Positions 12,304 to 38,577 of a DNA stretch of 64,000 nucleotides are shown piece after piece. The position numbers and the translations under genes were made by a program. A model generated the notes under the pieces. It did not search any database. It was not told the DNA's origin and saw only the letters and a program-made list of their open reading frames with translations. The stretch's first letter is position 1, and the number at the start of each line of letters is the position of its first letter. The stretch covers positions 310,001 to 374,000 of the forward strand of contig JAQVXD010000001.1 of the NCBI GenBank assembly GCA_028709385.1. Direction: 5' to 3'. The DNA is from Fermentimonas sp. (GTDB taxonomy: Bacteria; Bacteroidota; Bacteroidia; Bacteroidales; Dysgonomonadaceae).

Positions 12304-12455
12304 TTGGTTTGTAAAGTATCAATATATTAGTAATACAAAATAAGCGAAATAAACCGAAAAAATAAAATGAAGATGTTTCGAGTACGTTTTTAACCAGCTT
12401 CAATTAAAGCTATCTTTGGTTCATACATGTGTTTCATACAGGACGATACAATTAT

Positions 12456-12495: not shown

Positions 12496-12526
12496 TTGAA
12501 TGTAATTCTATCTGATTATTATTATG

Positions 12527-22929: not shown

Positions 22930-23955
22930 ATGGGACAAATAACCTTAAAAGATATAGCACATGCGCTTAACTTATCGCCGTCTACTGTTTCCAGGGCAAT
23001 GCGTAATCATCCTGCAATAAGTAAAGAGACTTGCAGAATTGTGCAAGAATATGCAGAAGAGCATAAGTATAAACCCAACAGGCTGGCTTTACAGCTTCGT
23101 ACCAATAAGAATACCACAATCGGTGTAATTGTTCCAGAAATAGTTCACTATTTTTTCTCTACTGTTTTGGATGGTATACAGCAGGAGGCAGAGAGCAAGG
23201 GTTATAATCTGCTTATTTCACACTCAAACGAGGATTACGAGAGGGAGGTAAGAAGTGTAGAGACACTGCTGGATGCACGAGTATGCGGTATTCTCATATC
23301 ACAATCTAAAACAACTCTGAAATTTGACCATTTTCAGGATATTATTGACAACAATGTACATTTGCTTTTTTTTGATCGTATTTGTACAGGCATAAATACC
23401 GATAAAGTTGTTGTTGATGACTATACAGGAGCATTTACTGCTGTCGAATATCTAATTGAGACCGGATGCAGAAATATCGCTTTTTTAGGCTCAGTGCCAT
23501 CAATGCCTATATCAAACAACAGGAGAATGGGTTATGAAGATGCACTGCGAAAACATAAAATTGAAATTAATAAGAGTTTGATTGAGGTTTGTGATACAGT
23601 TGGCCTTGCAAAAAAGCTTATACCTGAAATACTGAAACATAATCCTGTTCCTGATGCATTCTTTTGCATAAATGATGAGGTTGCGGCATACTGCATACAA
23701 ATAGCTAAAAGTATGGGTTTTAATGTGCCGGAGGATATTTCTGTTTGCGGATTTACTAACAGTTATATTACAGAGGTTACTTACCCCCGGCTTACCAGTG
23801 TTGATCAGCACGGTTTTGAAATGGGTAAAGTTGCTGCCCGCTTGCTTATAAATCGTATTGAAGGAAAAGAGAAGAAGGAGGGGGTAGTGAGCAGAGTTAT
23901 TAAAACAGAACTGGTGGTAAAGGAGTCAACTAAGCTGGTGCAAACGTTTGCGTAA
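22930..23955 (+). CDS. LacI-family transcriptional regulator of the starch locus
   Basis: DNA-binding sugar-responsive regulator of 341 residues. The N-terminal helix-turn-helix and hinge read ITLKDIAHALNLSPSTVSRA and HKYKPNRLALQLRTNK. The rest is a periplasmic-binding-protein-like effector domain (NTTIGVIVPEIVHYFFST, VCGILISQSK, DAFFCINDEVAAYCIQ, DISVCGFTNSYITEVTYPRL). It is the first gene of a plus-strand group with the MFS transporter and a GH13 enzyme. Two palindromes of LacI type lie nearby, one inside its own last codons and one upstream of susC, so it probably regulates both arms of the starch locus. This replaces the SusR-type regulator of the Bacteroides thetaiotaomicron sus locus. 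The inducer, perhaps maltose or a maltodextrin, is inferred. Confidence 0.92.
   Translation: MGQITLKDIAHALNLSPSTVSRAMRNHPAISKETCRIVQEYAEEHKYKPNRLALQLRTNKNTTIGVIVPEIVHYFFSTVLDGIQQEAESKGYNLLISHSNEDYEREVRSVETLLDARVCGILISQSKTTLKFDHFQDIIDNNVHLLFFDRICTGINTDKVVVDDYTGAFTAVEYLIETGCRNIAFLGSVPSMPISNNRRMGYEDALRKHKIEINKSLIEVCDTVGLAKKLIPEILKHNPVPDAFFCINDEVAAYCIQIAKSMGFNVPEDISVCGFTNSYITEVTYPRLTSVDQHGFEMGKVAARLLINRIEGKEKKEGVVSRVIKTELVVKESTKLVQTFA
23939..23952. promoter_or_regulatory. LacI-type operator upstream of the MFS gene
   Basis: TGCAAACGTTTGCG, containing the perfect 12-bp palindrome GCAAACGTTTGC centred on CG as in LacI/PurR-family operators. It overlaps the last codons of the regulator gene (encoding VQTFA) and ends just before its stop codon. 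Its centre is 68.5 bp upstream of the last base of the -7 box at 24007-24014. Confidence 0.7.
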
Positions 23956-24006
23956 ACGTAACCTGAATTACATGGCTTTTCTGAGCATTTACTTCGAAAA
24001 CCCGTG

Positions 24007-24014
24007 TATATTTG
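24007..24014 (+). promoter_or_regulatory. candidate -7 box for the MFS-GH13 operon
   Basis: TATATTTG matches TAnnTTTG and lies 55 bp before the MFS ATG. No TTTG lies at the usual -33 spacing; instead TTTTCTGAGCAT occurs at 23977-23988, an element also found upstream of susC. Lack of a -33 box would suit an activator-dependent promoter. Confidence 0.55.
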
Positions 24015-24069
24015 TCAGATATCAAGCTTCATAACATGAAATGTACTTAAATCATTTAATCTAAACAAC

Positions 24070-25599
24070 ATGAAGAAAAGACGATTATCCTTTTGGGAGA
24101 TATGGAATATGAGCTTCGGTTTCTTAGGTATTCAGTTTGGCTTTGCTTTACAGAACGCTAACGTCAGCCGTATTTTTGAAACATTGGGTGCCAAAGTAGA
24201 AGATATCCCTATTTTATGGATAGCTGCGCCAATAACAGGATTGATAGTTCAACCTATTATAGGTCATTTCAGCGATAAAACGTGGAACCGTTTTGGTCGT
24301 CGTCGTCCCTACTTTATGATAGGTGCCATTTTTACTACATTAGCACTTTTCATAATGCCAAATTCACCATCATTATGGATTGCTGCAGGAATGCTTTGGA
24401 TAATGGATGCTTCAATTAACATCTCTATGGAGCCGTTCAGGGCATTTGTGGGTGATAATCTGCCCTCAGAGCAAAGAACGATGGGATTTGCCATGCAGAG
24501 TTTCTTTATAGGTACTGGTGCTGTGATTGCGTCTGCTTTGCCTTATATACTGACAAACTGGTTTGGGGTACCCAATACTGCAGCGGAGGGTATTATTCCT
24601 CAATCTGTCAAGCTCTCTTTTTATATTGGCGGGGTGGTGCTGCTTGCATCTGTATTGTATACTGTTTTAACATCAAAGGAGTATTCACCTGAGGAGCTGG
24701 CTGCTTTTGAAGAGGAGAAAGAGAAGTCAACGGGTATAAAGGCTGTAATAAAAACACCTGTGACTTCAGATCAGTTTATGAAAAGAGGGGTTATATGGAC
24801 TCTCGCAGGTATTGTTGCAACACTCCTGATAAAGGTCTTTAAACTTGATCTCGATAATGCACAGCTATATATTGTATCAGGACTTATCCTGGCTTTTGGC
24901 CTGATTCTAATTATTTCTGCATTAATTACACGAAAAAATAATCAGCCTAAAGGAATGGTTGGTATTATGAATGATCTGCTGCATATGCCTAAGACAATGG
25001 GGCAGCTGGCAGTAGTTCAGTTTTTCTCCTGGCTTGCTTTTTATGCAATGTGGATATACACTACTCCTGCAATAACTCAGCACATTTATGGCACAACAGA
25101 TTCAAGTTCTGTACTATATAATCAGGGCGCAAACTGGGTGGGTGTTCTTTTTGCTGTCTATAATGGTGTTTCTGCTATAAGTGCATTTTTGCTTCCACTC
25201 ATAGCTCGTCAAATAGGACGCAGGGCTACTCATGCAGTAGCCTTGGCTTTAGGAGGGATATCGTTTATCTCTCTTTACTTTATTAAAGATCCTAATATCT
25301 TGCTGATACCCATGATAGGAGTAGGTTTTGCATGGGGAAGCATACTGTCTATGCCTTATGCAATACTGACTGGATCACTCCCTGCTGATAAAATGGGTAC
25401 TTATATGGGTATATTCAATTTCTTTATTGTAATACCACAGATACTGGCTGCAAGTATACTTGGATTTATTACCCGCGAATTGTTTCACGGACAGGTAATA
25501 CTTACTTTGGTTCTTGCAGGTTGTTCCCTTGTTTTGGGTGCGTTTAGTGTATTTATCGTTCAGGACAGGGATGATGTTTATCGCCTGAAGAGAAAGTGA
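24070..25599 (+). CDS. MFS sugar transporter (SLC45/GPH-like), likely maltose or maltodextrin uptake
   Basis: Inner-membrane proton- or cation-coupled sugar transporter of 509 residues with about 12 membrane segments. The family marker is the loop RFGRRRPYFMIG after helix 2, preceded by LIVQPIIGHFSDKTWN, as in SLC45-type and related sugar symporters. Other features are MNMSFGFLGIQFGFALQNAN-type helix 1 residues and a central cytoplasmic loop (about 215-245) rich in E and K. It lies between the LacI-type regulator and a GH13 enzyme, so maltose or maltodextrin is the expected substrate. That substrate is inferred from context, not from residues. Confidence 0.87.
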   Translation: MKKRRLSFWEIWNMSFGFLGIQFGFALQNANVSRIFETLGAKVEDIPILWIAAPITGLIVQPIIGHFSDKTWNRFGRRRPYFMIGAIFTTLALFIMPNSPSLWIAAGMLWIMDASINISMEPFRAFVGDNLPSEQRTMGFAMQSFFIGTGAVIASALPYILTNWFGVPNTAAEGIIPQSVKLSFYIGGVVLLASVLYTVLTSKEYSPEELAAFEEEKEKSTGIKAVIKTPVTSDQFMKRGVIWTLAGIVATLLIKVFKLDLDNAQLYIVSGLILAFGLILIISALITRKNNQPKGMVGIMNDLLHMPKTMGQLAVVQFFSWLAFYAMWIYTTPAITQHIYGTTDSSSVLYNQGANWVGVLFAVYNGVSAISAFLLPLIARQIGRRATHAVALALGGISFISLYFIKDPNILLIPMIGVGFAWGSILSMPYAILTGSLPADKMGTYMGIFNFFIVIPQILAASILGFITRELFHGQVILTLVLAGCSLVLGAFSVFIVQDRDDVYRLKRK

Positions 25600-25665
25600 G
25601 TAATTATTTACACGGTTAACATGTAAATGTGATTTGTTTCCGGAAGCTTCTAAAAGTATAATATA

Positions 25666-27000
25666 ATGAGCAAAAGATTTAACATACAATATTTCTTGTT
25701 AATAGCGGCAACGTTATTGGTGTCTTGCGGTGTTGAAAGTGTGCATCCGGAGTGGACTTACAATGCTGTAATCTATGAGGTTAATACTCGCCAGTTTACA
25801 CCAGAAGGAACTTTTAACGCTTTGAGGGAACATCTTCCGCGACTTCAGGAGCTCGGTGTTGATATTCTTTGGTTTATGCCCGTACAAACAATTGGTGAGG
25901 TGGATCGTAAAGGTACTCTCGGAAGCTATTATTCTATAAAAAATTATACCGAAGTTAATAGTGAATTCGGCACACTTGATGATTTTAAATCAGTTGTAGA
26001 TGAAGCGCACAATCTGGGTATGAAGGTTGTACTGGATTGGGTGGCCAATCATACTTCAAGAGATGCCGTGTGGGTTGAGGAGCATCCGGAATGGTATGTC
26101 AGAGATAGTTTGGGAGGCCTTGCTGTAAGGTACGACTGGACAGATATTGCTCAGTTGGATTATGGCATTGAGGAGTTACGCACAGAGATGATCAGGTCTA
26201 TGATGTACTGGATAAATGAAGCTGACATAGATGGTTTCAGATGTGACGTGGCATATGAATTGCCTACCGATTTTTGGGTGGCTGCAAGTGATTCACTTAA
26301 ATCTCTCAAGTCTGATATATTTCTCTTGGCAGAGGCTGAAAAACCTGAGTTGAACGAAACAGTTTTCAATGCATACTATGCCTGGGATTTTCATCATACT
26401 ATGAATTCGGTAGCTCAGGGAAAAGGAGATGTTGATTCACTCCGTTTGTCGTTAAGTAACATGATAAGTAATTTCCCTTCACACGCAATACCAATGTTTT
26501 TTACATCCAATCATGATGAAAACTCCTGGAGTGGTACAGAGTTCGAGCGTATGGGTGATGCTGCTGAAGCTTTCGCTGCACTGACACATGTTTTGCCCGG
26601 TATGCCTCTGATATATAGTGGTCAGGAAGTAGGATCCGATAACCGACTTGAATTCTTCGAAAAGGATACAATCGACTGGACAGATCCTGATAATTTTAGC
26701 GGTTTTTATGCTGTTCTGAGTAACTTAAAAGAGCATAACCCTGCACTTCAGTCACAGGAAAGGCATGGCGAAACGATTGAGATTGCCAACAGTAATCCGG
26801 AGAGTGTTTGGTCATTCAGCAGAACATATGACGACAGTGAAGTTATTTCAGTCTTCAACCTTACTGACCAGGAAGTGAACGTAACGTTCAATGAACAGAT
26901 TCCAGGCAGAGGTTATTATTCCTTCCCTGATTCCAATAGGGCAGAATCAGTGAAAGAGATGACACTCGCACCGTGGTCATATCGGATTTATTTTAAATAG
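25666..27000 (+). CDS. GH13 alpha-amylase-family lipoprotein
   Basis: Alpha-glucan-degrading enzyme of family GH13, 444 residues, with a lipoprotein signal (LLIAATLLVSCG). The (beta/alpha)8 barrel starts at VIYEVNTRQFTPEGTF. It shows region I VVLDWVANHTS, region II DGFRCDVAYELP with the nucleophile Asp, region III IFLLAEAEKPEL with the acid/base Glu, and region IV FFTSNHDENSW with the transition-state Asp. A short all-beta C-terminal domain closes the protein. There is no separate carbohydrate-binding module, so it probably acts on short maltodextrins in the periplasm. It follows the MFS gene by 66 bp and is presumably in the same operon. Confidence 0.92.
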   Translation: MSKRFNIQYFLLIAATLLVSCGVESVHPEWTYNAVIYEVNTRQFTPEGTFNALREHLPRLQELGVDILWFMPVQTIGEVDRKGTLGSYYSIKNYTEVNSEFGTLDDFKSVVDEAHNLGMKVVLDWVANHTSRDAVWVEEHPEWYVRDSLGGLAVRYDWTDIAQLDYGIEELRTEMIRSMMYWINEADIDGFRCDVAYELPTDFWVAASDSLKSLKSDIFLLAEAEKPELNETVFNAYYAWDFHHTMNSVAQGKGDVDSLRLSLSNMISNFPSHAIPMFFTSNHDENSWSGTEFERMGDAAEAFAALTHVLPGMPLIYSGQEVGSDNRLEFFEKDTIDWTDPDNFSGFYAVLSNLKEHNPALQSQERHGETIEIANSNPESVWSFSRTYDDSEVISVFNLTDQEVNVTFNEQIPGRGYYSFPDSNRAESVKEMTLAPWSYRIYFK

Positions 27001-27033
27001 TTCAGGTAATCTGATGCAGTTCAGTTAATCTGA
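27001..27033. repeat. pair of direct repeats between convergent genes
   Basis: TTCAGGTAATCTGA (27001-27014) and TTCAGTTAATCTGA (27020-27033) differ at one base and have a 19-bp period. Each also contains an inverted TTCAG/CTGA arm. They fill the 39-bp gap between the GH13 stop and the flavodoxin stop, so a role in 3'-end formation for both genes is possible. Confidence 0.5.
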
Positions 27034-27039
27034 ATAAGT

Positions 27040-27546
27040 TTAAGACAGGTGTGGTTTGAGCTGTTCCACCCAGTTAACTATACGCTCTTCAGTCAGTTCA
27101 GGCTCATAGTCGTCATCCAGAGGCAATCCGACGAACTGATCAGCTACAACTGCTCTGGAGTATTCAAAGTCGTATCCTTCGGTTGAAACCTGGCCAATTA
27201 CTGTAGCTCCCTGTTTTACTACCATCTCATAAAGTATACCAATTGCATCAACAAATGAGCTGGGGTATATAGAGGCATCTCCCATTCCGAATAGTGCTAC
27301 TTTTTTCCCTGTGAGATCCAGCTGCTCGAGTTTAGGGTAGAAGTCATTCCAGTCGTCCTGCAGATCCTGAACACCCCATGTAGAAACCCCCAATATAAGT
27401 ACATCGTGATTCTTAAACGGTTCCTCATCGCCGTCGTAAATATCTGATAAAGTGGGAGAATAATCTGCCAGTAATTCAGCTATTTTCTCGGCTGCATCTT
27501 TAGTGTGCTCTGTACTTGATCCGTAAATGATTGCTATCGACTTCAT
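27040..27546 (-). CDS. fldA: flavodoxin (long-chain)
   Basis: Small FMN-binding electron carrier, 168 residues, cytoplasmic. The phosphate-binding loop is IAIIYGSSTEHTKDAAEKIA at the N-terminus. FMN-contacting segments are LGVSTWGVQDLQDDW, with the stacking tryptophan, and ALFGMGDASIYPSSFVDAI. The inserted segment ATVIGQVSTEGYDFEYSRAV identifies the long-chain class. It lies between the two arms of the starch locus on the minus strand, with its own candidate promoter at 27599-27632 and no obvious functional link to glycan use. Confidence 0.93.
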   Translation of the reverse strand: MKSIAIIYGSSTEHTKDAAEKIAELLADYSPTLSDIYDGDEEPFKNHDVLILGVSTWGVQDLQDDWNDFYPKLEQLDLTGKKVALFGMGDASIYPSSFVDAIGILYEMVVKQGATVIGQVSTEGYDFEYSRAVVADQFVGLPLDDDYEPELTEERIVNWVEQLKPHLS

Positions 27547-27598
27547 TTGATTTATCTTTTATAATTTTTAATCTGTGATTTTTGTAATGTTATACTCG

Positions 27599-27632
27599 CA
27601 AAGATAACACAAGTTTCAAAATTGCCAACAAA
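27599..27632 (-). promoter_or_regulatory. candidate flavodoxin promoter
   Basis: On the minus strand TTTG (27632-27629) is followed after 22 bp by TATCTTTG (27606-27599), close to the Bacteroidetes TTTG-N19-21-TAnnTTTG pattern. The start codon is 53 bp downstream of the -7 box. Confidence 0.5.
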
Positions 27633-27690
27633 AAAGGCCTCTATTCCTGTTTGAATTAAAGTAGTTAAACATCGGTGCTAAATCGGTCAA

Positions 27691-27718
27691 ATCAACACTG
27701 TAAAAATACAGTGTTGAT
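27691..27718. repeat. perfect palindrome with AAAA loop
   Basis: ATCAACACTGTA (27691-27702) and its exact complement TACAGTGTTGAT (27707-27718) flank AAAA. Neither strand has a T-tract after the stem, so it is not a classical terminator. It lies 59 bp upstream of the flavodoxin -33 candidate, a position compatible with an operator or a structured RNA. Confidence 0.7.
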
Positions 27719-27802
27719 ACATATATACTACATAGTTGATACATAGTTGATGTAAGCGAAGTACATCTAAAACATAGCTTTAGAAGTGTTTTTAGGGTAG
27801 AT

Positions 27803-27834
27803 AAAAAAAGTCTGGCCCGAAAAAGAACCAGACT
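27803..27834 (-). terminator. intrinsic terminator of the sus operon
   Basis: On the minus strand AGTCTGG (27834-27828) pairs with CCAGACT (27816-27810) and is followed directly by a run of seven T. It is 46 bp beyond the stop codon of the GH13 gene at 27880. Confidence 0.85.
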
Positions 27835-27879
27835 AAAAGTATCTTTATATATAAAGTGTTGAACTTTAAATATAATGTA

Positions 27880-30294
27880 TCATTTCTTAAATGAGGTATA
27901 AATCAGGAAACTGTTTGCCGGAACAGTGGTGCTCATATTTGAAGAAGTAACATTAAGAGTTTCTGTCTGATTCAAATAATTATACCAGGTTCCTGTCTTC
28001 GGAAAAGTGGTAGTTGCAGTGATTGGCTCATTTGTGAAATTGCCAACGACAACAACCTGTTTTGAATTTCCAAATGATGAGAGGGTGATAAATCTGCCTT
28101 GATTCCAGTATGTAGGAGTAACTTTCCAGTCTAGCGTTGCTGTTGAATTGAAAAGTTCTTCATTATCCATTCTCAGGTCGATAAGCTTGCTGTATGTCTT
28201 GTATAGATTATTTCGTTCTGTTACTCCCAGGTAATCCCATTTTATCGGTTTCCTGCCGGTTCTTCCGTTTTGATCAATAGAAATATCATATCCCAACTCT
28301 CCAAACTGCCATATCATTTTAGGTCCGGGAACTGTAAAGAAGAATGCTGCATTTGTGCCAAGTTGTGACATTCTTGCATTCAGATTGGTTTTAATAATTC
28401 CATTACCCCATGTAACCTGTTTATATGACAAACGCTCTTCATCATGACTTTCCATATAGCTCACCAAACTGTTGGTGGGTCGTGAGCTGCTGTAATAACT
28501 GCCTGTGAATCCTGAATTATCTTTATAGCCCATGGCAGATTGACCATACTGTTCGTTCATTTTTCTCCAAACCATCATTCCATCATTACTTAACTCAGTC
28601 TCTTCACGATCATCAGCAAAGTGCTCCAGTATGACGTAGGCATCGGGATTTACTGCTTTGATTGCATTGTTGTAATCTTTTAAGATTGCAACACGTGAAG
28701 CATCGTAGTTTGAAGCTGATGATTCTGTACTGCTCTTTTGTGTAAAGCCCTTTGTGAGATCGAATCGGAAGCCATCGATATTGTATTCCTCAAGTAGGAA
28801 CTGCAGATTTCGTTTTACAAAATCTCTTACTATGTATTTGCCATCTATTAGGGCTTCATGGTTGAAATCATGAAATACTGAATAAGGGTGAGGTGCATCA
28901 ACATTAAAGAATGGATTGTTGGTTGTAGTCTTATTTGCTGATGAATTCCACCACATCCGTGCAAAAGGATTTGCGCCTGTTGCGTGATTATAAACAACAT
29001 CAAGAATAACAGCAATTCCGCGTCTATGGCACTCATCAATAAACTCTTTATACTTCATGTCGGTGCCGTATGCTTTATCCATAGCAAAGAAAAATGCAGG
29101 ATTGTAACCCCAGCTGTCGTTGCCGTCAAATTCCTGTACAGGCATAAGCTCAATTGCATTTACGCCGAGTGATTCCAAATAATCAAGTTTTTCCATTGCA
29201 CCCTGCAGATCTCCTGTTTCAGTGAAATCCCGAAGTAACATCTCATAAATTACCAGATTGTCTTTTGCCGGAATCTGGAAATCGGTCACCTGCCAGTTGT
29301 AAGTCTCCGGTTGTGTTTTGAAAACTGATACTATTCCGATAGCTTTCTCCGGATAATGCTTTAAATCAGGATATGTTGATGCAGTGATATATTTATCATT
29401 ATTAGGATCTAATATTTTGCGGGAATAAGGATCTGCCACTCTGAAGGCTTCCTCACCTGATTTGCCAAGATAATACTGGAAAGCATACTCTTTAAAAGGA
29501 TCAAGATTTGAAATAGTAATCCACCAGACTCCTGCTGATTCATCACGAAACATTTGTGACTTCTCGTCGTTACTCAATTTCCAGTCATTAAAATCACCAA
29601 CGATATGAGCAAAATCTTTTCTGGCACCGTTTTTATCTTTATCAAAAAGAACAAAGGTTACAGTTGAATTATCAGTTATATTTATTCCATACTGCAGACC
29701 GGCAGGCACCGTTCCTGTTTTAACTGCAGCAGGCTCAAATGCTTTGAATTTACTGTCTGAAATTCCTTCAATAAAGAAATCTTTACCATCTTTATTCCCT
29801 TTCTTTTTTTCACCGTCTGTACCAGCTTCTGCACTTCTTGCGATAATACCTATTTTGTTAATCGGTATTTCACCTGAATTAAACCACTCCCTTATTGTGG
29901 GCGAGAGCTTAATACTCCATGCATAACTTTCACCTGCCACCGGATTCATCTTGATTTTAGAAGTATTTTCATCCCAGCCGGCAGGCACTTTTTGCCACTG
30001 ACCTTCATTAATTATTCCAATATGAACATAAACATCACCTTTATAATTATATAATCCGGAGCCGGCTGGTGCTTTAAAGTAGATAGTCAGCTCTTTATCA
30101 GCATCAGGGACTGTGGGTTCCCAAGAGAACCAGTCCTTTAGTTTAGCCGGTTCCTCCGGTTTTGGCTCATCAGGCTTCGGTTTTTCCGGTACAACAACAG
30201 GGTCATCTCCACAAGAGAAAAGAAAAACAGAAATAAGCAGCAGAGTTAATACTGTGCTGACTGTTTTTACAGTCTTATTATATATTTTATTCAT
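27880..30294 (-). CDS. multidomain GH13 alpha-amylase lipoprotein (SusG-like role)
   Basis: Large alpha-glucan hydrolase, probably surface-exposed and making the first cuts in starch. I start it at the ATG at 30294, giving 804 residues and a lipoprotein signal ending LLISVFLFSCG; an upstream in-frame ATG at 30342 would add 16 residues. After a Pro/Glu-rich linker comes a beta domain (DWFSWEPTVPDADKELTIYF). Then comes a CBM48-like module (FAHIVGDFNDWKLSND, EYAFQYYLG). The catalytic barrel has region I VILDVVYNHATG, region II DGFRFDLTKGF, region III AYVILEHFADD and region IV YMESHDEERL. A beta C-terminal domain closes it. The two N-terminal modules and lipid anchor suit binding of insoluble starch. 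It is the last gene of the minus-strand starch operon. Confidence 0.9.
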   Translation of the reverse strand: MNKIYNKTVKTVSTVLTLLLISVFLFSCGDDPVVVPEKPKPDEPKPEEPAKLKDWFSWEPTVPDADKELTIYFKAPAGSGLYNYKGDVYVHIGIINEGQWQKVPAGWDENTSKIKMNPVAGESYAWSIKLSPTIREWFNSGEIPINKIGIIARSAEAGTDGEKKKGNKDGKDFFIEGISDSKFKAFEPAAVKTGTVPAGLQYGINITDNSTVTFVLFDKDKNGARKDFAHIVGDFNDWKLSNDEKSQMFRDESAGVWWITISNLDPFKEYAFQYYLGKSGEEAFRVADPYSRKILDPNNDKYITASTYPDLKHYPEKAIGIVSVFKTQPETYNWQVTDFQIPAKDNLVIYEMLLRDFTETGDLQGAMEKLDYLESLGVNAIELMPVQEFDGNDSWGYNPAFFFAMDKAYGTDMKYKEFIDECHRRGIAVILDVVYNHATGANPFARMWWNSSANKTTTNNPFFNVDAPHPYSVFHDFNHEALIDGKYIVRDFVKRNLQFLLEEYNIDGFRFDLTKGFTQKSSTESSASNYDASRVAILKDYNNAIKAVNPDAYVILEHFADDREETELSNDGMMVWRKMNEQYGQSAMGYKDNSGFTGSYYSSSRPTNSLVSYMESHDEERLSYKQVTWGNGIIKTNLNARMSQLGTNAAFFFTVPGPKMIWQFGELGYDISIDQNGRTGRKPIKWDYLGVTERNNLYKTYSKLIDLRMDNEELFNSTATLDWKVTPTYWNQGRFITLSSFGNSKQVVVVGNFTNEPITATTTFPKTGTWYNYLNQTETLNVTSSNMSTTVPANSFLIYTSFKK

Positions 30295-30399
30295 AATTGC
30301 CAGCTTTTTTATTTTTATTGATTTACAGTCATATATTTCCACTGCTTATTTCCGGTATGTTTCACTAACCAATTAATTATCTTTATTGAAAGAGTGAAG

Positions 30400-32229
30400 T
30401 TATTCCAATATAAGAATTTCTTTTGGTGCAAGCTTCATAGTATTGCCCAATGAAATATTATTTCCTGTGAGAAAATCATTCCATTCGGCCCTGTTCATAA
30501 TTGACTCAGAATATCTGTCAAGGTTTATTTCAACATCTTTGCTTGTGCCGTTCAAGAAAACTAAAACACTCTCATTTCCTATAAACCGTTCGTAAACATA
30601 AACACCTTTTTGCAACACATAATGTTTCATGTCTCCATAAGCAATCACCTCATTACCACGACGCCAGTGAAGAAGCTTGCTGAGGAAGTCAAATGCTTCG
30701 TTCTGAATTTCATCCCGTTCTTCTCTGGTAAAATGATTTACCTTATCACCAGGCCAGCCACCAGGAACGTCAAGTCTGATATCACCGTCCGATTTGCTTT
30801 TATTACCATGCATAAGCAATTCAGTTCCATAATATATCTGAGGGGTGCCGGGCATAGTCAATAAGAAAGTGACTGCCTGTTTCCAGCCTGAAAGGTCGGT
30901 AGGATATTCCTTCAACAATCTGTCAGTATCATGATTATCCAGAAACCTAAGCACATTATAAATATCAGGATACATGAAATCATAAGTCATATGATCAAAA
31001 ATACCATGTAACCCGCCTCCCCATTCGCCTGTCTCTTCGAAGAAAGCAGAGTGGGAAAGTCCCATAAACTTAAAATCCATTACCGATTTTAATTTCGTGT
31101 TATTGGGGTTGATAGGGCTGTTTCTTTGCCAGAATGAAGTGCCGATTGTGTGGTTTAGCCAGGCTTCTCCAACAATATTGTAATCGGGATATTCCATTTC
31201 AACTGCCTCTATCCAATCAACCATCATATCATAATCTGCATAAGGGTAGGTGTCCTGGCGAATACCATCCACTCCTGAATATTCGATCCACCAGATACTG
31301 TTCTGTATAAGATATTTTGCGACGTGACGGTTTCTCTGGTTAAGATCAGGCATTGTTGGAACAAACCATCCGTCAATCATTTTGCTTTTGTCGTACTCCG
31401 AAGCATAAGGATCAAAATACATCTCCTTCATATGGGAAGTCTGCACATACTCTTCAAAATTATTGAACCAGTCGAAGGATGGTACATCATAAACCCATGG
31501 ATGGTCACTGCCACAGTGGTTGAAGATCATATCCATTACCACTTTCATGTCTTTGGAGTGAGCATCATCAATAAGTTTTTTATACTCTTCATTTGATCCG
31601 AAGCGAGAGTCTACTTTATAATAATCTGTTGTTGCATAACCATGATAAGAACCACCTTCCATATCATTCTCAAGAACCGGGTTCAGCCAAATTGCTGTTA
31701 CACCAAGATCAGAAAGATAGTCAAGGTGATTGGAAATTCCTTTTAAATCACCACCGTGACGTGCGTTTGGATCATTTCTGTCCACCTTATAAGGCATACG
31801 CATATCAATCTGGTCATTTGTAGGGTCACCATTCGCAAATCTGTCCGGCATTATCAGGTATAGCACATCAGATGAATCGAAACTTTCAATATCTAATCTC
31901 TCCTGATTGCGTTCCTTGAGTTCATATTGTACTGTATGACTGTTGTTTGCACCTTTAAAAACTATGTTGAACTTTTCTGGCTTTGATTCTGATAAATCAA
32001 GATAGATTAACTGATAGTTTGGGCTGTCAAGCGTTACAACCTCTTTTATCCTGATGTTTTCTGAAGTAATTTCAGGTTTATATTCTGCAATATTTTCTCC
32101 TGAAATCATGAGTTGAAGTTCATTTTCCTGCATACCGCTCCACCAAAATGCAGGGTCTATTTTTACATTTTGTGCATATAAAACTGATGCTGCTAATATA
32201 AGCGAAAAGAGTATTAATGTTTTTTTCAT
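30400..32229 (-). CDS. susA: SusA-like neopullulanase/cyclomaltodextrinase (GH13)
   Basis: Periplasmic GH13 enzyme of 609 residues that should hydrolyse maltooligosaccharides, cyclodextrins or pullulan pieces after import. The signal peptide (LILFSLILAASVLYAQ) has no lipobox cysteine. The N-terminal domain begins VKIDPAFWWSGMQENELQLM, typical of the cyclomaltodextrinase N-domain. The barrel begins LYLIMPDRFANGDPTND. It has region I VVMDMIFNHCG, region II GVDGIRQDTYPY with the nucleophile Asp, region III YNIVGEAWLN with the acid/base Glu, and region IV LRFLDNHDTDR. It lies after a hairpin terminator that separates it from susE/F, so its level may be set independently of the binding proteins. 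Confidence 0.92.
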   Translation of the reverse strand: MKKTLILFSLILAASVLYAQNVKIDPAFWWSGMQENELQLMISGENIAEYKPEITSENIRIKEVVTLDSPNYQLIYLDLSESKPEKFNIVFKGANNSHTVQYELKERNQERLDIESFDSSDVLYLIMPDRFANGDPTNDQIDMRMPYKVDRNDPNARHGGDLKGISNHLDYLSDLGVTAIWLNPVLENDMEGGSYHGYATTDYYKVDSRFGSNEEYKKLIDDAHSKDMKVVMDMIFNHCGSDHPWVYDVPSFDWFNNFEEYVQTSHMKEMYFDPYASEYDKSKMIDGWFVPTMPDLNQRNRHVAKYLIQNSIWWIEYSGVDGIRQDTYPYADYDMMVDWIEAVEMEYPDYNIVGEAWLNHTIGTSFWQRNSPINPNNTKLKSVMDFKFMGLSHSAFFEETGEWGGGLHGIFDHMTYDFMYPDIYNVLRFLDNHDTDRLLKEYPTDLSGWKQAVTFLLTMPGTPQIYYGTELLMHGNKSKSDGDIRLDVPGGWPGDKVNHFTREERDEIQNEAFDFLSKLLHWRRGNEVIAYGDMKHYVLQKGVYVYERFIGNESVLVFLNGTSKDVEINLDRYSESIMNRAEWNDFLTGNNISLGNTMKLAPKEILILE

Positions 32230-32270
32230 TTTTATAAATTATTCTACTCCTGTTTTTAATATAAAAACCT

Positions 32271-32320
32271 GAAGAAAAAATAAGTCTGAAGCTATTCTGT
32301 TTTAAACAGCTTCAGACTTA
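32271..32320 (-). terminator. intra-operon terminator/attenuator between susE/F and susA
   Basis: On the minus strand TAAGTCTGAAGCT (32320-32308) pairs perfectly over 13 bp with AGCTTCAGACTTA (32293-32281) and is followed at once by TTTTTTC. It lies 24 bp beyond the susE/F stop codon. Such a site would lower expression of the downstream amylases relative to susCDE. Confidence 0.85.
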
Positions 32321-32343
32321 TACTAAAAAATTAATCTGTTTGT

Positions 32344-33780
32344 TTATTTAATAGTTCCACTATTGTTATCAAAATTCAAAGTGATTACCTGACCGGCTGT
32401 TCCGGGGACTGCTGCTTGATCACCGCCATCATTACGATACTCAATGATGCCATCATAAACATTGAATTCGGCCTGCCACCAATCTGAAATCCATGAGTGA
32501 GCAACATACATTCTTATATCACCATCAGCCTTAAGTGGCGGGGAAGTTACTGTTTTTTCAGTATTGTCAACTGTAAACAGATTCTCAGCTTTACCGGCAT
32601 CCCAGCCACCAAATGTATTGCCCATTCCATATACTTTAACAGGGACAACAGAAAGTTTAAATTCATCATCTCTTAAATCTAAGACAACTGTATATACACC
32701 GGATGCTGCTACTGACATGTCGCCTCCATTATCTGAGATTTCTACGCTTTCCGGATCAAAACTGGTTATTTCATTGTAACCTAAGTTTACAGTACCCCAT
32801 TTAGCTTCAGATACTTTAAAGCCTTTACCTTCTTCTAAGAAAAGAATTTTCCAATATAAGCCATCATTGCCACCGGCAACTTTGTGCATCTCTGCAGCAG
32901 CTTTGCTGCCCGGTTCATCCCAGCCATATGCTGTTGCCTCTCCCACAAGATACATTTTGTCGGGATATTCAGGCGGTATTACAGGTTCACCCAATAGTTT
33001 ATAAGTTGCATTATATGTTCTTGTTCTGATATTATACTGGATAGTGAATTCAAATTCGCCACCAAATTCAGTAGAGAAATCAGGCCCACCCGGTCTTACC
33101 TGACTCATTGCATTTTCAATGAGTGGACCGGCACTGCTAAAGTTGCCAAGGTCTGTGAAAATTTTTGCTTTTCCTCCACCCTCGATGTTTAATTCTTTAC
33201 CCCAACCGCCTGAGTATCTGAATTTATAGCCACCGGGGCTCATATTGAGTTTGCCTTTCCATGTAATTGTTGTGTTTCCATCAAAAGTAGCTGCATCCAT
33301 TGGAGTTTCACCATCCCAGCCTTTAGGAGTTGCTGCACCTATTACGCCATAATTTACCGGTAAAATATTGACTTCCTCTAATGATGTGTTTACAATTACA
33401 AAATAAAATCCGTCATTATCAACTTTTAGAGGAGTTGCATCCGCTACAAGAGAATATACTGCTAAGGTCGCATCTTTACTAACTTCACCGCCGTTTCCAA
33501 ATTTAACAACCTCATTCAGGTCAGTTGCAATAGAGATAGAGAAATCACCATCAGCCTTTAGCCAGGTATAGATTCCAACCAGTTCCGGTAAATCATCACT
33601 GACATCCAGTGGTACTGCTTTTAAAGCAGATGCAGGAGCCTCGCCGCTATAAACTGTTGCAGTACCGGAAATATAGACTCCTTGTTGAATATCTTCAACA
33701 ATTGTCCAGTTTTCATTGTCACTACAATTTATCAATAAAGGTAGTAGCAATAATAATAGATAGTTATATAAATTTTTCAT
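32344..33780 (-). CDS. SusE/SusF-type starch-binding outer-membrane lipoprotein
   Basis: Surface lipoprotein of 478 residues (lipobox LLPLLINC) expected to bind starch near the SusCD complex; no catalytic motif. It appears to hold several tandem beta modules with repeated patterns: YISGTATVYSGEAPASA, YGVIGAATPKGWDGETPMDA, YLVGEATAYGWDEPGSKAAA and YGMGNTFGGWDAGKAENLF. The recurring GWD with downstream aromatic residues is what SusE/SusF starch-binding modules show. It lies 12 bp downstream of susD. Whether it corresponds to SusE or SusF cannot be decided; only one such gene is present here against two in the B. thetaiotaomicron locus. Confidence 0.88.
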   Translation of the reverse strand: MKNLYNYLLLLLLPLLINCSDNENWTIVEDIQQGVYISGTATVYSGEAPASALKAVPLDVSDDLPELVGIYTWLKADGDFSISIATDLNEVVKFGNGGEVSKDATLAVYSLVADATPLKVDNDGFYFVIVNTSLEEVNILPVNYGVIGAATPKGWDGETPMDAATFDGNTTITWKGKLNMSPGGYKFRYSGGWGKELNIEGGGKAKIFTDLGNFSSAGPLIENAMSQVRPGGPDFSTEFGGEFEFTIQYNIRTRTYNATYKLLGEPVIPPEYPDKMYLVGEATAYGWDEPGSKAAAEMHKVAGGNDGLYWKILFLEEGKGFKVSEAKWGTVNLGYNEITSFDPESVEISDNGGDMSVAASGVYTVVLDLRDDEFKLSVVPVKVYGMGNTFGGWDAGKAENLFTVDNTEKTVTSPPLKADGDIRMYVAHSWISDWWQAEFNVYDGIIEYRNDGGDQAAVPGTAGQVITLNFDNNSGTIK

Positions 33781-33792
33781 TTCTATTTAGTT

Positions 33793-35412
33793 TTAATTGG
33801 TCTGTTGATATCCCGGATTCTGAGATAAGTTAGTGTTAAGAGATAGAACATCTGCAGGAATAGGGAAAACTGTTCTAAACGGTGCAGAAACTGTTCTGTC
33901 AGTAATTGGCAGATGATATTTACCAAAACGTATCAGATCCTGACGTCTTACACCTTCCCATGCAAGTTCAAGCATTCTTTCGTCAAGAATATTATTAAGA
34001 GTTGCAGTACGTGCAGGTGCATCTACTCTTGCTCTGACTTTTTGTAATTCAGCATCTCCATTTTGTCCATTTCTAACAAGTGCTTCTGATTTCATAAGAA
34101 GAACATCTGCGTATCTGAATAAAACCCAGTCGTTCCTCACAAGCTGACCTGCAGATTGAGCATTAGTGTCAAACTCATATTTAGCCATTCTTGCTCCTGC
34201 TGTTTTTTCTTCTTCTATTCCCGATACATCCAAAGCAATTGCATCTGGTTTGTACACAAGTTCTTTACCATCATCAATTACCGGATTACCGTCAGGACCA
34301 AATACTGCTCCCATAAAGTAAGTCTTTTCTGTTCTTGGATCAACTCCGTCTTTTCTGAAAATTGCCAATGCTTCTTTAGTTGCAGATGCTCCATTCCATC
34401 CTTCCTGAGAGAATGCCTTTGCATGTGCATAGTGTCTGGAGCGCACTAAATTCATATTTCTTGCTTCAAAATTTATCGGGTCCATTGGAATTACAAATAT
34501 ATTTTCAGAAGAAAGCTCATTTGTAACACTAAAGTTAGCTGAGAAGTTAGGTTCAAGTTTGTATCCCAAATCTGTTATCATATCACAATAAGCAATTGTT
34601 GCTTCCCATGCATTCATCTGAGTACCGTCTACAGTAAAGCTTGCCTGGCCATTTGGAATTCCATTGTTGTCAGTCCAGTCATTATCAGCATATACTTGAG
34701 AATTCAGCGCAAGTCGTGCCATTAAGAAATAAGCCACAGGTTTAGTCATTCTGCCATAATATTCCCCAAATTTAGAACTGTTTGCAGAGCTCAGATATGG
34801 TATAGCTTCTTCAAGCTCTTTAACCACAAATTCAAACACTTCAGATCTGGTAGATTGTTTAACATCTGAAATCTTTACAGAAGAACTTTCCACGATAGGT
34901 ACTCGTGCATAAAGATCAAGCAGGTAGTAATAATACATTGCTCTGAAAGCTTTCACTTCGGCCTGATAAATTGGCAGTAGTGAGTTTTCCGGGTCAAGTT
35001 CTATTAATTCGTTTAGTTTATCTAACGATTGGTTGCTTTTGCCAATTACTCTGTAAAGATAGTCCCAGCTGCCTTTGATAATTGAATTGTCAATTGACCA
35101 GTTATGTGTAAACATGTCTTGCCAGAGGCCACCATCAAACCAGTCACCTCCACGTGTTGGCAGTAAAGCTTCATCAGCAGTGAAAGTATTAAGGTCGTAT
35201 ACACCTCTGTCAGTGCCGGCTAGTCCCTGACTACCACCTGTGCCGCCAACCTCAGTGTAGAGGTTAGCCACTGTGTTAAGATAAATCAGTACTGAACTTT
35301 TATATGCTTCTTCTTCCGGCATCTGGTCAACCGGATTTTCATCCAGAGAGCAAGAAAAGAGTGATAGTAACAGTGCTATTATCGTACTGTATATTATTGT
35401 ATTTTTATTCAT
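33793..35412 (-). CDS. susD: SusD-like starch-binding lipoprotein
   Basis: Surface lid of the SusCD importer, 539 residues, lipobox IALLLSLFSC. SusD features: ENPVDQMPEEEAYKSS at the start and TADEALLPTRGGDWFDGGLW, which resembles starch-specific SusD proteins. It also has AFRAMYYYYLLDLYARVPIV in the TPR region, YFLMARLALNSQVY, FRYADVLLMKSEALVRNG, and MLELAWEGVRRQDLIRFGKY. It ends LNTNLSQNPGYQQTN. It follows susC by 10 bp. The starch assignment rests on the GH13 neighbours and on the RGGDW segment. Confidence 0.93.
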   Translation of the reverse strand: MNKNTIIYSTIIALLLSLFSCSLDENPVDQMPEEEAYKSSVLIYLNTVANLYTEVGGTGGSQGLAGTDRGVYDLNTFTADEALLPTRGGDWFDGGLWQDMFTHNWSIDNSIIKGSWDYLYRVIGKSNQSLDKLNELIELDPENSLLPIYQAEVKAFRAMYYYYLLDLYARVPIVESSSVKISDVKQSTRSEVFEFVVKELEEAIPYLSSANSSKFGEYYGRMTKPVAYFLMARLALNSQVYADNDWTDNNGIPNGQASFTVDGTQMNAWEATIAYCDMITDLGYKLEPNFSANFSVTNELSSENIFVIPMDPINFEARNMNLVRSRHYAHAKAFSQEGWNGASATKEALAIFRKDGVDPRTEKTYFMGAVFGPDGNPVIDDGKELVYKPDAIALDVSGIEEEKTAGARMAKYEFDTNAQSAGQLVRNDWVLFRYADVLLMKSEALVRNGQNGDAELQKVRARVDAPARTATLNNILDERMLELAWEGVRRQDLIRFGKYHLPITDRTVSAPFRTVFPIPADVLSLNTNLSQNPGYQQTN

Positions 35413-35422
35413 GATGTTTCAA

Positions 35423-38413
35423 TTAAAAATTAATGTTTAAACCGATCGAATATGTTCTTGATAAAGGATAAAATCTTTTATCATCTAATCCGAGTTCTCC
35501 ATTTACAGTTGTACTGTTTATCATAGGAGATAGTCCGGAATAGTTAGTAAATGTGTGTAGATTATCAACCGAAGCTGTAATTCTAATACCGTTAACCCAA
35601 GGTTTCAGGTTATCCACATTAACATTATATCCGAGTGTTACATAATCAATATGAAGATAATCACCTTTTTCCAGCCAATAATCTGTTACCTCGCTATCGA
35701 AAATCTTCTTTTCAGGTGCTTCGGGCAGAACATTGTATGTAGGGAATGTATTCATATTCATGTATGAAAGTGCTGTACCATTGTATATTTTATGACCAAA
35801 GCCACCATTCAGCTGTGTTTGAATGTCAAAAGCCTTGTATCTGAAACTCAAATTAGTACCCAGTATTACTTTAGGAATTGCCTGTCCTGCAAAATATCTG
35901 TCGCCACCATCACTTAGATTGATATTTGGATCGTCATCAAGATTTAGAATATTGTATGTGTAAGTTCCCAATCCATCATTAATGATACCATTTGATTTAG
36001 GCAGATAGAATACTCCTAATGGCTGACCAACAACCTGGTAGGTTACGTAAGTATTTCCTCCCTGGAAGCCTGCACCGTTAATTCTTGCTAGACGCATATA
36101 TTCAGCTGCATTCAGGTCCTGACCCATATAAGTACCGCTTAGTGATAAGAGTTTATTTTTTTGTATAGCAACATTCCCTGCAATTGTCAGTTCCATGTCG
36201 TTAGTTCTTAAAGGCGTAACACCGAGTGACAATTCAACACCACTATTTTCCATTTCTCCAAGGTTTGCAAGCAAACGTGGATGTACAAAAGGAGGAACCG
36301 GTACATCATATTCATAAAGAAGATCTTTAGTTCTTGAATAATAGTAGTCGAATGTTGCTGTCAGCTTGTTGTCAAAAAAGGCTGCATCAAAACCAACGTC
36401 GAACATGTCTTTAGTTTCCCATTTAAGGTCGGGATTTGAGTTTCTGTTGTATGCATATGTTACTGTTTGTACACCGTTAACAGTAGTAATACCTGAGGGA
36501 CCCATTAATGAAAGAGAGTTATAAGCTGAAATCGCATCCTGGTTACCGGTACGTCCGTAACCTACTCTCCACTTAAAATTGTCAATCGCATCAACATCTT
36601 TCAAAAAGCCCTCTTCACTCATTATCCAAGCCAATGAAGCTGAAGGGAAGAAACCCCATTTATTGTTTTCTCCAAGCTTGGAAGAACCGTCGAAACGTAT
36701 ATTTGCAGTGGCGATATATTTATCTGAAATAATATAGTTTACACGTCCCAGAAAAGAATTAAGTGAGTATTCATTTTTGTATGAACTTACATCACCATAT
36801 TTAACTAATGCTCCGGCAGCTAAATTGTTATAACCGAAGTAGTTTGTATCAAAACCGCGTGCATTGGATCCAAAGCCTGAATAGGAGTAATTTTGTCCTT
36901 CAACTAATGCAAGTGCATCCAGTCGGCTATTTGCAAATAGCTTTTTGTAGTTGAGTTGAATGTTCCCCATCATTATATCGCTCTTGTTCAGACCCCTGTA
37001 TGCTTTACCTCTACCTTCTCTTATACCCTGTTTTATATTATTTGGGATATAATTCATGTTTTCCTTTGAGTTGTAAGTATATGAACCAAATGCGCTTAAA
37101 GAGAATGCCTCGTTTATGTACCAAGTCAAACGACCATTTGTGGATAAGTATGCATTTTCTTCTCTGTCATCAATTGACAGTCTTCCCAATGGGTTGTCAA
37201 CCTCATTAGCATTTGGATCTTCCGGCCATGTGCCGTCTTCTTTCTGAACAGCTGGAAGGGTTGGGTTGAAAGAAGCGGCAGAATAGAAAGTCTTTTGATA
37301 ATCATTAACATATCTGCTGTTTCTTTTTGAACCGAATGCTCCCATGTCCAGTTTTAATTTTCTGTCAAAGAAGTACTGACTTCCATCTAGCTTGATTGTG
37401 TAATTTTGCATGCCATTATTCAGGATAATACCTTTTTGGTCTATAATTCCTAATGAGGCTCTGAAATTAGTGTCAGCTGATCCGCCACTAAATGAGATTC
37501 TGTGATTTTGTGTGAATCCATTCTGTAGCATCTCATCCATAAAATTGGTTGATGCTCCGCCATCTAATGCATTTCCATATCCTCCATCAGTTACAGCTTT
37601 TCTGTAGCCATCAGCACTGAGCATATCCATTGTTTTGTATACCTGATCAACTCCAAAAGTTCCGTCATAATTAATGGAGCTGGTACCAGCTTGTCCTTTA
37701 GCAGTAGTTACAACAATAACACCGCTTGCTCCACGTGAACCATACTGGGCTGTTTCAGAAGCATCCTTAAGTATAGTAAAACTTTCAATATCTGAAGGAG
37801 ATAAAGCGTTTAATAAACCCAGGTCTCCAAATACTCCATCAATAACAACCAAAGGGTCGTTGCCACCTGATAATGATGTTGTACCCCTTATGCGGATTGA
37901 GGCACCTGCAGTTGGATCTCCTCCTGTTTTTTGGATGTTTACTCCGGCTACCTTACCTTTAAGTGCATCTAAAGGATTAACGATAACACCGGCATTCATA
38001 TCCTCTCTGCCTATTTTTTCTACTGCACCTGAAATAGTACGGGTACTACCGGTAGCATAACCCACAACAACTAATTCTTCTAATAATTCCGGGTCTTCCT
38101 CCAGAAAAATATTAATTACAGTCCTGTTGTTTACAGGAATAGTTTGAGGTTGATACCCAATGTAGCTCACCTCTAAAACACCATTTGATGGTGCCTGTAG
38201 TGTGAAATTACCGTCAAAGTCACTTACTGTCCCTGTTGATGTTCCTTGAATAAGGATATTGGCACCGATTATAGGTTCGCCGGAAACATCTACAACAGTT
38301 CCCCTTACATTTATCGTAGCACCTGTTTGAGCACTGACCGATAAAACCATTAGCATCCCTGATAGAAATAAGGTCAGAAACGCTTTCGTTTTTTTGTTGA
38401 AATTTACATACAT
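35423..38413 (-). CDS. susC: SusC-like TonB-dependent starch oligosaccharide transporter
   Basis: Outer-membrane TonB-dependent transporter, 996 residues. After a signal peptide (about 1-28) comes a carboxypeptidase-regulatory-like domain (about 33-110, NVRGTVVDVSGEPIIGANIL). The TonB-box region is LLEELVVVGYATGSTRTISG. The plug follows (IRGTTSLSGGNDPLVVIDGV, SFTILKDASETAQYGSRGAS) and then the barrel, ending YSIGLNINF. Unlike the SusC of the mannan locus it lacks an STN domain, in keeping with regulation by a cytoplasmic LacI-type protein instead of a sigma/anti-sigma relay. It is the first gene of the minus-strand starch operon, with a 283-bp upstream region carrying the operator and promoter candidates. 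Confidence 0.94.
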   Translation of the reverse strand: MYVNFNKKTKAFLTLFLSGMLMVLSVSAQTGATINVRGTVVDVSGEPIIGANILIQGTSTGTVSDFDGNFTLQAPSNGVLEVSYIGYQPQTIPVNNRTVINIFLEEDPELLEELVVVGYATGSTRTISGAVEKIGREDMNAGVIVNPLDALKGKVAGVNIQKTGGDPTAGASIRIRGTTSLSGGNDPLVVIDGVFGDLGLLNALSPSDIESFTILKDASETAQYGSRGASGVIVVTTAKGQAGTSSINYDGTFGVDQVYKTMDMLSADGYRKAVTDGGYGNALDGGASTNFMDEMLQNGFTQNHRISFSGGSADTNFRASLGIIDQKGIILNNGMQNYTIKLDGSQYFFDRKLKLDMGAFGSKRNSRYVNDYQKTFYSAASFNPTLPAVQKEDGTWPEDPNANEVDNPLGRLSIDDREENAYLSTNGRLTWYINEAFSLSAFGSYTYNSKENMNYIPNNIKQGIREGRGKAYRGLNKSDIMMGNIQLNYKKLFANSRLDALALVEGQNYSYSGFGSNARGFDTNYFGYNNLAAGALVKYGDVSSYKNEYSLNSFLGRVNYIISDKYIATANIRFDGSSKLGENNKWGFFPSASLAWIMSEEGFLKDVDAIDNFKWRVGYGRTGNQDAISAYNSLSLMGPSGITTVNGVQTVTYAYNRNSNPDLKWETKDMFDVGFDAAFFDNKLTATFDYYYSRTKDLLYEYDVPVPPFVHPRLLANLGEMENSGVELSLGVTPLRTNDMELTIAGNVAIQKNKLLSLSGTYMGQDLNAAEYMRLARINGAGFQGGNTYVTYQVVGQPLGVFYLPKSNGIINDGLGTYTYNILNLDDDPNINLSDGGDRYFAGQAIPKVILGTNLSFRYKAFDIQTQLNGGFGHKIYNGTALSYMNMNTFPTYNVLPEAPEKKIFDSEVTDYWLEKGDYLHIDYVTLGYNVNVDNLKPWVNGIRITASVDNLHTFTNYSGLSPMINSTTVNGELGLDDKRFYPLSRTYSIGLNINF

Positions 38414-38501
38414 GTTGTTAACATTATTAGATTATCTGTTCAATTTAATACTTTGTTCTCAATAATATAGAGTTGATTAACTAAATATTATACTCTCTTT
38501 A

Positions 38502-38509
38502 CAAAGTTA
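38502..38509 (-). promoter_or_regulatory. candidate -7 box of the susC operon
   Basis: Reads TAACTTTG on the minus strand, matching TAnnTTTG, 88 bp upstream of the susC ATG. A TTTG at 38538-38535 is 25 bp upstream, too far for a standard -33 box, and is part of TTTGCTGAAGCAT (38538-38526), which is shared with the MFS promoter region. Confidence 0.55.
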
Positions 38510-38563
38510 GATTTTCTTAAATGGGATGCTTCAGCAAACTACTTAATTAACAAGGTTAAGCAG

Positions 38564-38577
38564 TGCAAACGATTGCA
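38564..38577. promoter_or_regulatory. LacI-type operator upstream of susC
   Basis: Plus strand TGCAAACGATTGCA, a CG-centred palindrome with one mismatched pair, nearly identical to the site at 23939-23952. Its centre is 68.5 bp upstream of the last base of the susC -7 box, the same distance as at the MFS promoter. Confidence 0.7.

What the first reader, a model, noticed from the sequence alone, without database searches (positions are those of the whole stretch)
23939..38577. Two LacI-type operators with identical spacing to their promoters link both arms of the starch locus
Seen: TGCAAACGTTTGCG at 23939-23952 and, read on the minus strand, TGCAATCGTTTGCA at 38577-38564. Each centre is exactly 68.5 bp upstream of the final G of a TAnnTTTG box (24014 and 38502). 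Between operator and box both leaders also share TAACCT (23959-23964; 38558-38553) and TTTnCTGA(A)GCAT (23977-23988; 38538-38526), and both lack a -33 TTTG at normal spacing. Known: LacI-family operators are CG-centred palindromes. Inferred: the LacI-type protein encoded at 22930 binds both, and from near -75 it more likely activates than blocks. This differs from the SusR control of the B. thetaiotaomicron sus locus.
Basis: partly seen in the sequence, partly recalled or inferred. Interest (0 to 1): 0.72.

Follow-up and report, generated by a model that had tools for sequence, protein, structure and literature searches.

The report
LacI-type switch for starch genes
In a bacterium related to Fermentimonas and Proteiniphilum, and in most sampled species of its genus, the genes for eating starch carry one DNA landing site for a LacI-type protein at an almost fixed distance before each promoter, which suggests that this protein switches the genes on, unlike the membrane protein SusR known from gut Bacteroides.

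Summary
In detail: both operators and TAnnTTTG boxes are where stated, 68.5 bp apart. The geometry is conserved. With the window included, 13 of 13 SusC promoters lie at 68.5 and 36 of 39 MFS promoters at 68.5-70.5. The own genome has a third, unlinked copy at 68.5, before malQ; at this spacing these three are its only composites with up to two mismatches. In loci fetched by LacI similarity, 47 of 65 boxes after dissimilar operators fall in three adjacent spacings. These promoters rarely have a -33 TTTG (2 of 78; controls 15 of 99). The extra leader matches (TAACCT, TTTnCTGA(A)GCAT) occur in no relative examined and look like chance. New: operator quality is graded. SusC sites fit the consensus; nearly all MFS and all malQ sites deviate once. 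Best reading: a LacI-family maltodextrin regulator activating from about -75, also found outside the family but in few sampled genomes of the order (18 of 393). Binding, ligand and sign of regulation are inferred. Four genomes without lacI keep the malQ site.

The parts
22930..23955 (+). lacI-type regulator gene, 341 aa; putative maltodextrin regulator
   Evidence: Pfam LacI HTH and Peripla_BP_3; best solved chains by sequence are CcpA; orthologues at 69-94% identity in the family
23939..23952 (+). operator 1, TGCAAACGTTTGCG, overlapping the 3' end of lacI
   Evidence: operator found in 39 of 45 family lacI-MFS gaps, window included
24007..24014 (+). -7 box TATATTTG of the MFS promoter, 68.5 bp from operator centre
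   Evidence: 68.5-70.5 in 36 of 39 loci with the operator
24070..25599 (+). MFS sugar transporter, likely maltose or maltodextrin (inferred)
   Evidence: Pfam MFS_1, MFS_2; sub-cut-off match to GPH_sucrose
25666..27000 (+). GH13 alpha-amylase-family enzyme
   Evidence: Pfam Alpha-amylase
38564..38577 (-). operator 2, TGCAATCGTTTGCA, upstream of susC
   Evidence: SusC arms match TGCAAWCGWTTGCA in 13 of 13, window included
38502..38509 (-). -7 box TAACTTTG of the susC promoter, 68.5 bp from operator centre
   Evidence: 68.5 in 13 of 13 SusC arms
35423..38413 (-). SusC-type TonB-dependent receptor
   Evidence: NCBIfam TIGR04056 above cut-off
33793..35412 (-). SusD-type lipoprotein
   Evidence: Pfam SusD_RagB
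32344..33780 (-). SusE/SusF-type protein
   Evidence: Pfam SusF_SusE
30400..32229 (-). GH13 cyclomaltodextrinase-type enzyme
   Evidence: Pfam Cyc-maltodext_N, Alpha-amylase, Cyc-maltodext_C
27880..30342 (-). GH13 enzyme, 820 aa
   Evidence: Pfam Alpha-amylase

Best explanation
The LacI-type protein encoded at 22930 is a dedicated alpha-glucan (maltose or maltodextrin) regulator. It binds one 14-bp CG-centred palindrome upstream of each target operon: MFS-GH13, susCDE-GH13-GH13, and the unlinked malQ. It works mainly as an activator. Its site is 68.5 bp (tolerated 68.5-70.5) upstream of the last G of the TAnnTTTG box, about -75, so that bound protein and RNA polymerase keep a set helical relation. 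It makes up for the missing -33 element, perhaps through the polymerase alpha subunit on the AT-rich DNA between. Graded site quality (SusC perfect, MFS and malQ one deviation) would favour the outer-membrane receptor when active regulator is scarce. Shown computationally: sites, spacing, conservation, target genes, graded quality, scarcity of -33. Inferred: binding by this protein, activation, alpha-subunit contact, maltodextrin as ligand, order of induction.
For: Spacing 68.5 in 13 of 13 SusC arms and 68.5-70.5 in 36 of 39 MFS arms, though much of the DNA between differs between lineages. Genus scan: 52 composites in 30 of 39 genomes, reversed control 0. Third own-genome site before malQ at 68.5; malQ sites at 68.5-69.5 in 26 of 28 genus genomes with lacI. 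Order scan: 31 of 62 matches at 68.5-70.5, 3 of 31 allowed spacings; 24 of these 31 precede SusC, lacI, MFS or alpha-glucan genes. Loci fetched by LacI similarity: 47 of 65 boxes at 68.5-70.5; other CG palindromes in held loci 0 of 16. -33 TTTG in 2 of 78 against 15 of 99 control promoters, p = 0.004. One operator between divergent lacI and susC with boxes at 68.5-69.5 on both sides in L104, L106 and L124, three genomes of two other families.
Against: No binding, expression or start-site data. 4 of 8 genus genomes without a lacI orthologue keep the malQ operator; missing contigs or a second binder could explain it. All nine genus genomes without lacI also lack the MFS gene, so co-occurrence at the locus arms is nearly automatic. 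Six of 45 family lacI-MFS gaps have no operator. The closest relative, G004, has its MFS site at 38.5. Outside the family the rule is looser: 19 of 35 boxes; of 15 sites in L093-L103 only one, in L098, has a box at 68.5 from the listed operator; in L088-L092 and L097 no close operator lies in the lacI-MFS gap. Altered-operator controls had 2 of 12 boxes in the peak. Only 18 of 393 order genomes have a peak composite. AT pulses also occur, more weakly, in control promoters. 9 of 13 SusC arms share GTTAATTA between operator and box, so a second factor is possible. Most LacI-family members are repressors released by their sugar (recalled).
Confidence: 0.72

Rival explanations
1. The LacI protein is a conventional repressor. 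From -75 it blocks or competes with a separate, unseen activator, or loops DNA, and maltodextrin releases it.
For: Most LacI-family sugar regulators repress (recalled). PMC3463425 (passages) reports CcpA repressing the lev operon from an upstream site by preventing LevR from working. 9 of 13 SusC arms share GTTAATTA in the spacer, which could be such an activator's site.
Against: No operator is seen over the box in the printed arms; a near-invariant distance is not needed for simple blocking; across 78 dissimilar elements the spacer shows no common block beyond AT-rich pulses; -33 TTTG is rare; the malQ arm has the same geometry on another contig.
Confidence: 0.14
2. Activator, but the signal is a central metabolite (Cra-like or CcpA-like catabolite sensing) that sets or removes binding; maltodextrin is not the ligand.
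For: The best solved relatives by sequence are CcpA. Some order-level sites at about 58-60 precede pgk, pckA and aldehyde ferredoxin oxidoreductase genes.
Against: In the own genome the three targets found are alpha-glucan genes; 24 of 31 order-level peak sites precede starch or glycogen enzymes, SusC, MFS or lacI genes. It scores far below the NCBIfam CcpA cut-off, 165.9 against 442.35.
Confidence: 0.2
3. Another LacI-family paralogue binds these sites.
For: The own genome has 3 matches to this LacI; 4 of 8 genomes without the orthologue keep the malQ site.
Against: In 44 of 45 family loci, all fetched through lacI, the MFS gene follows lacI (L086 ends early); in three genomes of two other families lacI shares its operator with susC.
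Confidence: 0.09

Closest known systems
B. thetaiotaomicron sus locus under SusR
   Same: SusC/D/E with GH13 enzymes; alpha-glucan genes switched by one regulator
   Different: [quoted passage not shown] here a LacI-type protein and one CG-centred palindrome per promoter
CcpA activating from upstream cre sites (Bacillus, Lactococcus)
   Same: LacI family, palindromic site upstream of the core promoter, helix-face dependence reported (PMC3463425, passages)
   Different: CcpA is global and works with HPr-Ser-P; here three targets in the own genome at one spacing; far below the CcpA model cut-off
MalR of Firmicutes and other LacI maltose regulons
   Same: LacI family, maltose or maltodextrin genes (PMC4052901, passages)
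   Different: MalR is called the maltose repressor there; here activation is inferred, in relatives of Fermentimonas and Proteiniphilum
Bacteroides LacI regulators KdgR, UxaR, UxuR, UxmR
   Same: LacI family in Bacteroides (PMC3878776, PMC4052901, passages)
   Different: They are listed for uronate pathways; the passages seen report no starch target and no promoter geometry

Membership tests
LacI/GalR family regulator | LacI HTH plus periplasmic-binding-protein-like domain | tested here: met
   PF00356, PF13377 above cut-off
LacI/GalR family regulator | CG-centred palindromic operator near target promoters | tested here: met
LacI/GalR family regulator | protein binds that operator and responds to a small molecule | not testable with these tools
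   no binding data
SusR-type control of sus | SusR orthologue at or acting on the locus | not tested
   no SusR search was run; none of the ten locus proteins scanned in each was named as SusR
CcpA | scores above the NCBIfam CcpA equivalog cut-off | tested here: not met
   165.9 bits against 442.35; best NCBIfam match is CytR, 206.3 against 436
Class I-type activator promoter (works like) | site upstream of core promoter at near-constant helical phase | tested here: met
   looser outside the family
Class I-type activator promoter (works like) | weak or absent upstream core element | tested here: met
   -33 TTTG 2 of 78 against 15 of 99
Class I-type activator promoter (works like) | contact with RNA polymerase alpha subunit | not testable with these tools
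   AT-rich pulses are compatible but also occur in control promoters
Bacteroidota primary sigma promoter | TAnnTTTG at -7 with TTTG at -33 | tested here: inconclusive
   -7 box present, -33 absent; PMC7366714 reports both elements upstream of 81% of primary starts in B. thetaiotaomicron (section 8) and says -33 could not be identified in Flavobacterium johnsoniae (passage)
sus-type polysaccharide utilization locus | SusC/SusD pair with GH13 enzymes | tested here: met

The most novel reading that the evidence does not exclude
A LacI-type activator system, scattered over several families of the order, that runs alpha-glucan use without need of SusR. Each promoter has lost its -33 element and carries one operator at a set helical phase. 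Operator quality is tuned per operon by conserved single deviations, so that the outer-membrane receptor is induced before the inner transporter and MalQ.
Probability: 0.38. Interest if true: 0.76.

Novelty: new variant of a known kind. Interest (0 to 1): 0.6.

Why it matters
Control of starch loci in Bacteroidota is described from SusR. This would be a second, simpler regulator with an unusually strict promoter geometry, and the composite predicts targets from DNA alone (the malQ site was found that way). It offers a tractable model for how activators meet the unusual Bacteroidota promoter, and a testable case of induction order written into operator quality. In the listings of searches I saw no title or abstract describing it. 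Those searches cover an open-access library that lacks most subscription papers, some listings were capped (15 of 233, 8 of 229), and most listed papers were not opened.

Tried and rejected
Shared leader motifs TAACCT and TTTnCTGA(A)GCAT as functional elements: rejected, found only in the window among 39 MFS and 13 SusC arms. Operator upstream of lacI in the own family (autoregulation): matches with up to 2 mismatches in 2 of 41 loci, both the same weak site. Extension to the class outside the order: 16 matches in 332 genomes, 0 at 68.5-70.5, reversed control 4, so no support there for this operator sequence. AT-rich pulses as proof of alpha-subunit contact: not specific. Co-occurrence at the two locus arms as proof of the binder: set aside as nearly automatic. 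A six-frame-stop filter for non-coding sites removed most sites and was replaced. A script stopped with an error after its first part; the rest was redone.

Full report
Observation. Operator 1 lies within the last codons of lacI (22930-23955). The locus is ADI(-), then lacI, MFS, GH13 (+), facing a flavodoxin gene, GH13, GH13, SusE, SusD, SusC (-). The window is part of an unnamed 2.83-Mb, 128-contig genome, 88% complete. The best named match to its LacI is a Fermentimonas MAG (94%), followed by Proteiniphilum and Bacteroidales records.

Conservation in the family. A LacI search of 150 relatives gave orthologues at 69-94% identity across the genus and family. I fetched 60 loci, 44 of them holding these orthologues. 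With the window that makes 45 family loci; MFS follows lacI in 44 (L086 ends early). 39 of 45 have the operator between lacI and MFS. Spacing to the box is 68.5 in 25, 69.5 in 7, 70.5 in 4 and 38.5 in 1 (L045); in L054 and L058 the box reads TATATTTA at the same place. The six without operator are L059, L064, L066, L067, L070 and L086; in L064, L066 and L070 the gap is only about 20-50 bp. I examined 13 SusC arms, the window and 12 relatives whose fetched pieces reached them; all have a box at exactly 68.5, and L049 has a second one at 36.5. Much of the DNA between operator and box differs between lineages, but 9 of 13 SusC arms share GTTAATTA (my count).

Genome-wide specificity. In 39 genus genomes the composite with spacing 68.5-70.5 occurs 52 times in 30 genomes; the reversed pattern occurs 0 times. 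In the own genome, at spacing 68.5, there are three sites with 0-1 mismatch, none with 2 and seven with 3; the reversed control gives five in all. The third site is on contig C7, 46927-47002 minus, upstream of malQ, a GH77 enzyme with CBM20.

The malQ test. malQ is unlinked, so it tests the regulator better than the locus arms. Of 39 genus genomes, 36 gave a readable malQ start. The operator is present in 27 of 28 with the lacI orthologue (26 with a box at 68.5-69.5; G014 has no box, G002 no operator) and in 4 of 8 without it, one of these at 67.5; Fisher p = 0.005, not corrected for relatedness. The four exceptions (G003, G006, G009, G029) count against a simple one-regulator story unless their lacI is missing through assembly. 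All nine genus genomes without lacI also lack MFS, so the contrast of 29 of 30 against 1 of 9 for the locus arms is nearly automatic.

Order level. In 393 genomes of the order (Bacteroidales by the record titles), with spacings 54.5-84.5 allowed, 62 matches were found in 43 genomes; reversed control 2. By my count from the table 31 of 62 lie at 68.5-70.5, in 18 genomes: 12 in six genomes of the own family and 19 in twelve genomes of nine other families. In 345 class genomes, 332 of them outside the order, there were 16 outside matches, none at 68.5-70.5. I fetched 54 loci covering the order-level places not already held. Of the 31 peak sites, 24 precede SusC (7), lacI (3), MFS (2, one of them an unspecific MFS protein) or alpha-glucan genes (12: MalQ, GlgP, GH13, debranching enzyme, CBM26 protein). 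Two GlgP and three MalQ assignments rest on N-terminal likeness only. The other 7 precede GH28, PurC, a small CrcB-like frame (name recalled), Pta, an unassigned 609-aa protein, or no clear gene (two). In L104, L106 and L124 (three genomes, two families) one operator sits between divergent lacI and susC, with a box at 68.5 or 69.5 on both sides.

Unbiased spacing test. In 141 loci fetched by LacI similarity and not by operator, keeping only operators with dissimilar downstream DNA (at most 60% identity), perfect operators have 33 of 37 boxes at 68.5-70.5 and operators with up to one mismatch 47 of 65: 28 of 30 for the family run alone, 19 of 35 for the other loci run alone. Four altered operator patterns give 2 of 12. 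Other CG-centred palindromes in all held loci give 0 of 16. Against the rule: of 15 sites in the more distant loci L093-L103 only L098 has a box at 68.5 from the listed operator; L100 has one at 80.5, and several have none.

Promoter type. Among 78 elements with dissimilar spacers (of 152, all chosen at 68.5-70.5) a TTTG at -33 distance is present in 2, against 15 of 99 control promoters from loci of the same kind; for TTG 9 against 29 (p = 0.004 and 0.005). AT-rich pulses lie about 10 bp apart between operator and box; control promoters show them too, more weakly. The control set was selected by box and reading frame and may contain false promoters.

Graded operators. Against TGCAAWCGWTTGCA, SusC sites have no mismatch in 13 of 13; MFS sites have one mismatch in 37 of 39 and none in 2 (p = 2e-10, sequences related by descent). 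All 31 malQ sites found have exactly one by my reading, in 29 a C at the first base; four of the 31 are in genomes without lacI. The MFS deviation differs by lineage (C or T at base 5, G at base 10 or 14), as if it arose more than once. I read this as tuning; weaker constraint on these sites is not excluded.

Mechanism and rivals. A near-fixed distance, a missing upstream core element and one operator serving two promoters fit activation by contact with polymerase better than blocking. CcpA gives a precedent within the LacI family for activation from upstream sites and helix-face dependence (PMC3463425, passages). SusR differs in kind and in predicted site form (PMC3878776, passages). For promoters I read section 8 of PMC7366714 and passages; the start position is therefore approximate. 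Of PMC4052901, PMC10766802 and PMC11046441 I saw passages only. The listings of my literature searches showed no description of this system, in an open-access library, with capped lists and most papers unopened.

Verdict.

Noticed in passing
35423-38413 and SusC genes in L046, L049, L050, L060, L070: The first 100 residues of SusC are 62-82% identical to those of sister genomes, the later 50-residue blocks 11-60%, under the same promoter: the receptor body looks exchanged while promoter, signal peptide and N-terminal domain stayed.
   Followed up: partly
38502-38577 and SusC arms: GTTAATTA lies between operator and box in 9 of 13 SusC arms: possible site of a second factor (counted by eye).
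   Followed up: no
L045 (G004), MFS arm: The nearest relative has its MFS operator at 38.5 instead of 68.5, 30 bp less, close to three helical turns: a natural test of helical phase.
   Followed up: no
L135, L138, L139, L152, L153, L155: A smaller group of order-level operator-box pairs at 57.5-59.5, about one helical turn closer, precedes pgk, pckA, aldehyde ferredoxin oxidoreductase, GH13 and other genes: perhaps a second LacI-type regulon.
   Followed up: partly
L099, L102: Two overlapping palindromes 12 bp apart upstream of SusC; by eye the far one sits at about 68.5-70.5 from the box.
   Followed up: no
L125 (G151): One operator between divergent purC and a small frame, both boxes at 69.5: the geometry may be used outside starch genes.
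   Followed up: no
10366-14569: A sigma-factor-like protein, FecR and a TonB-dependent receptor lie together in the window.
   Followed up: no
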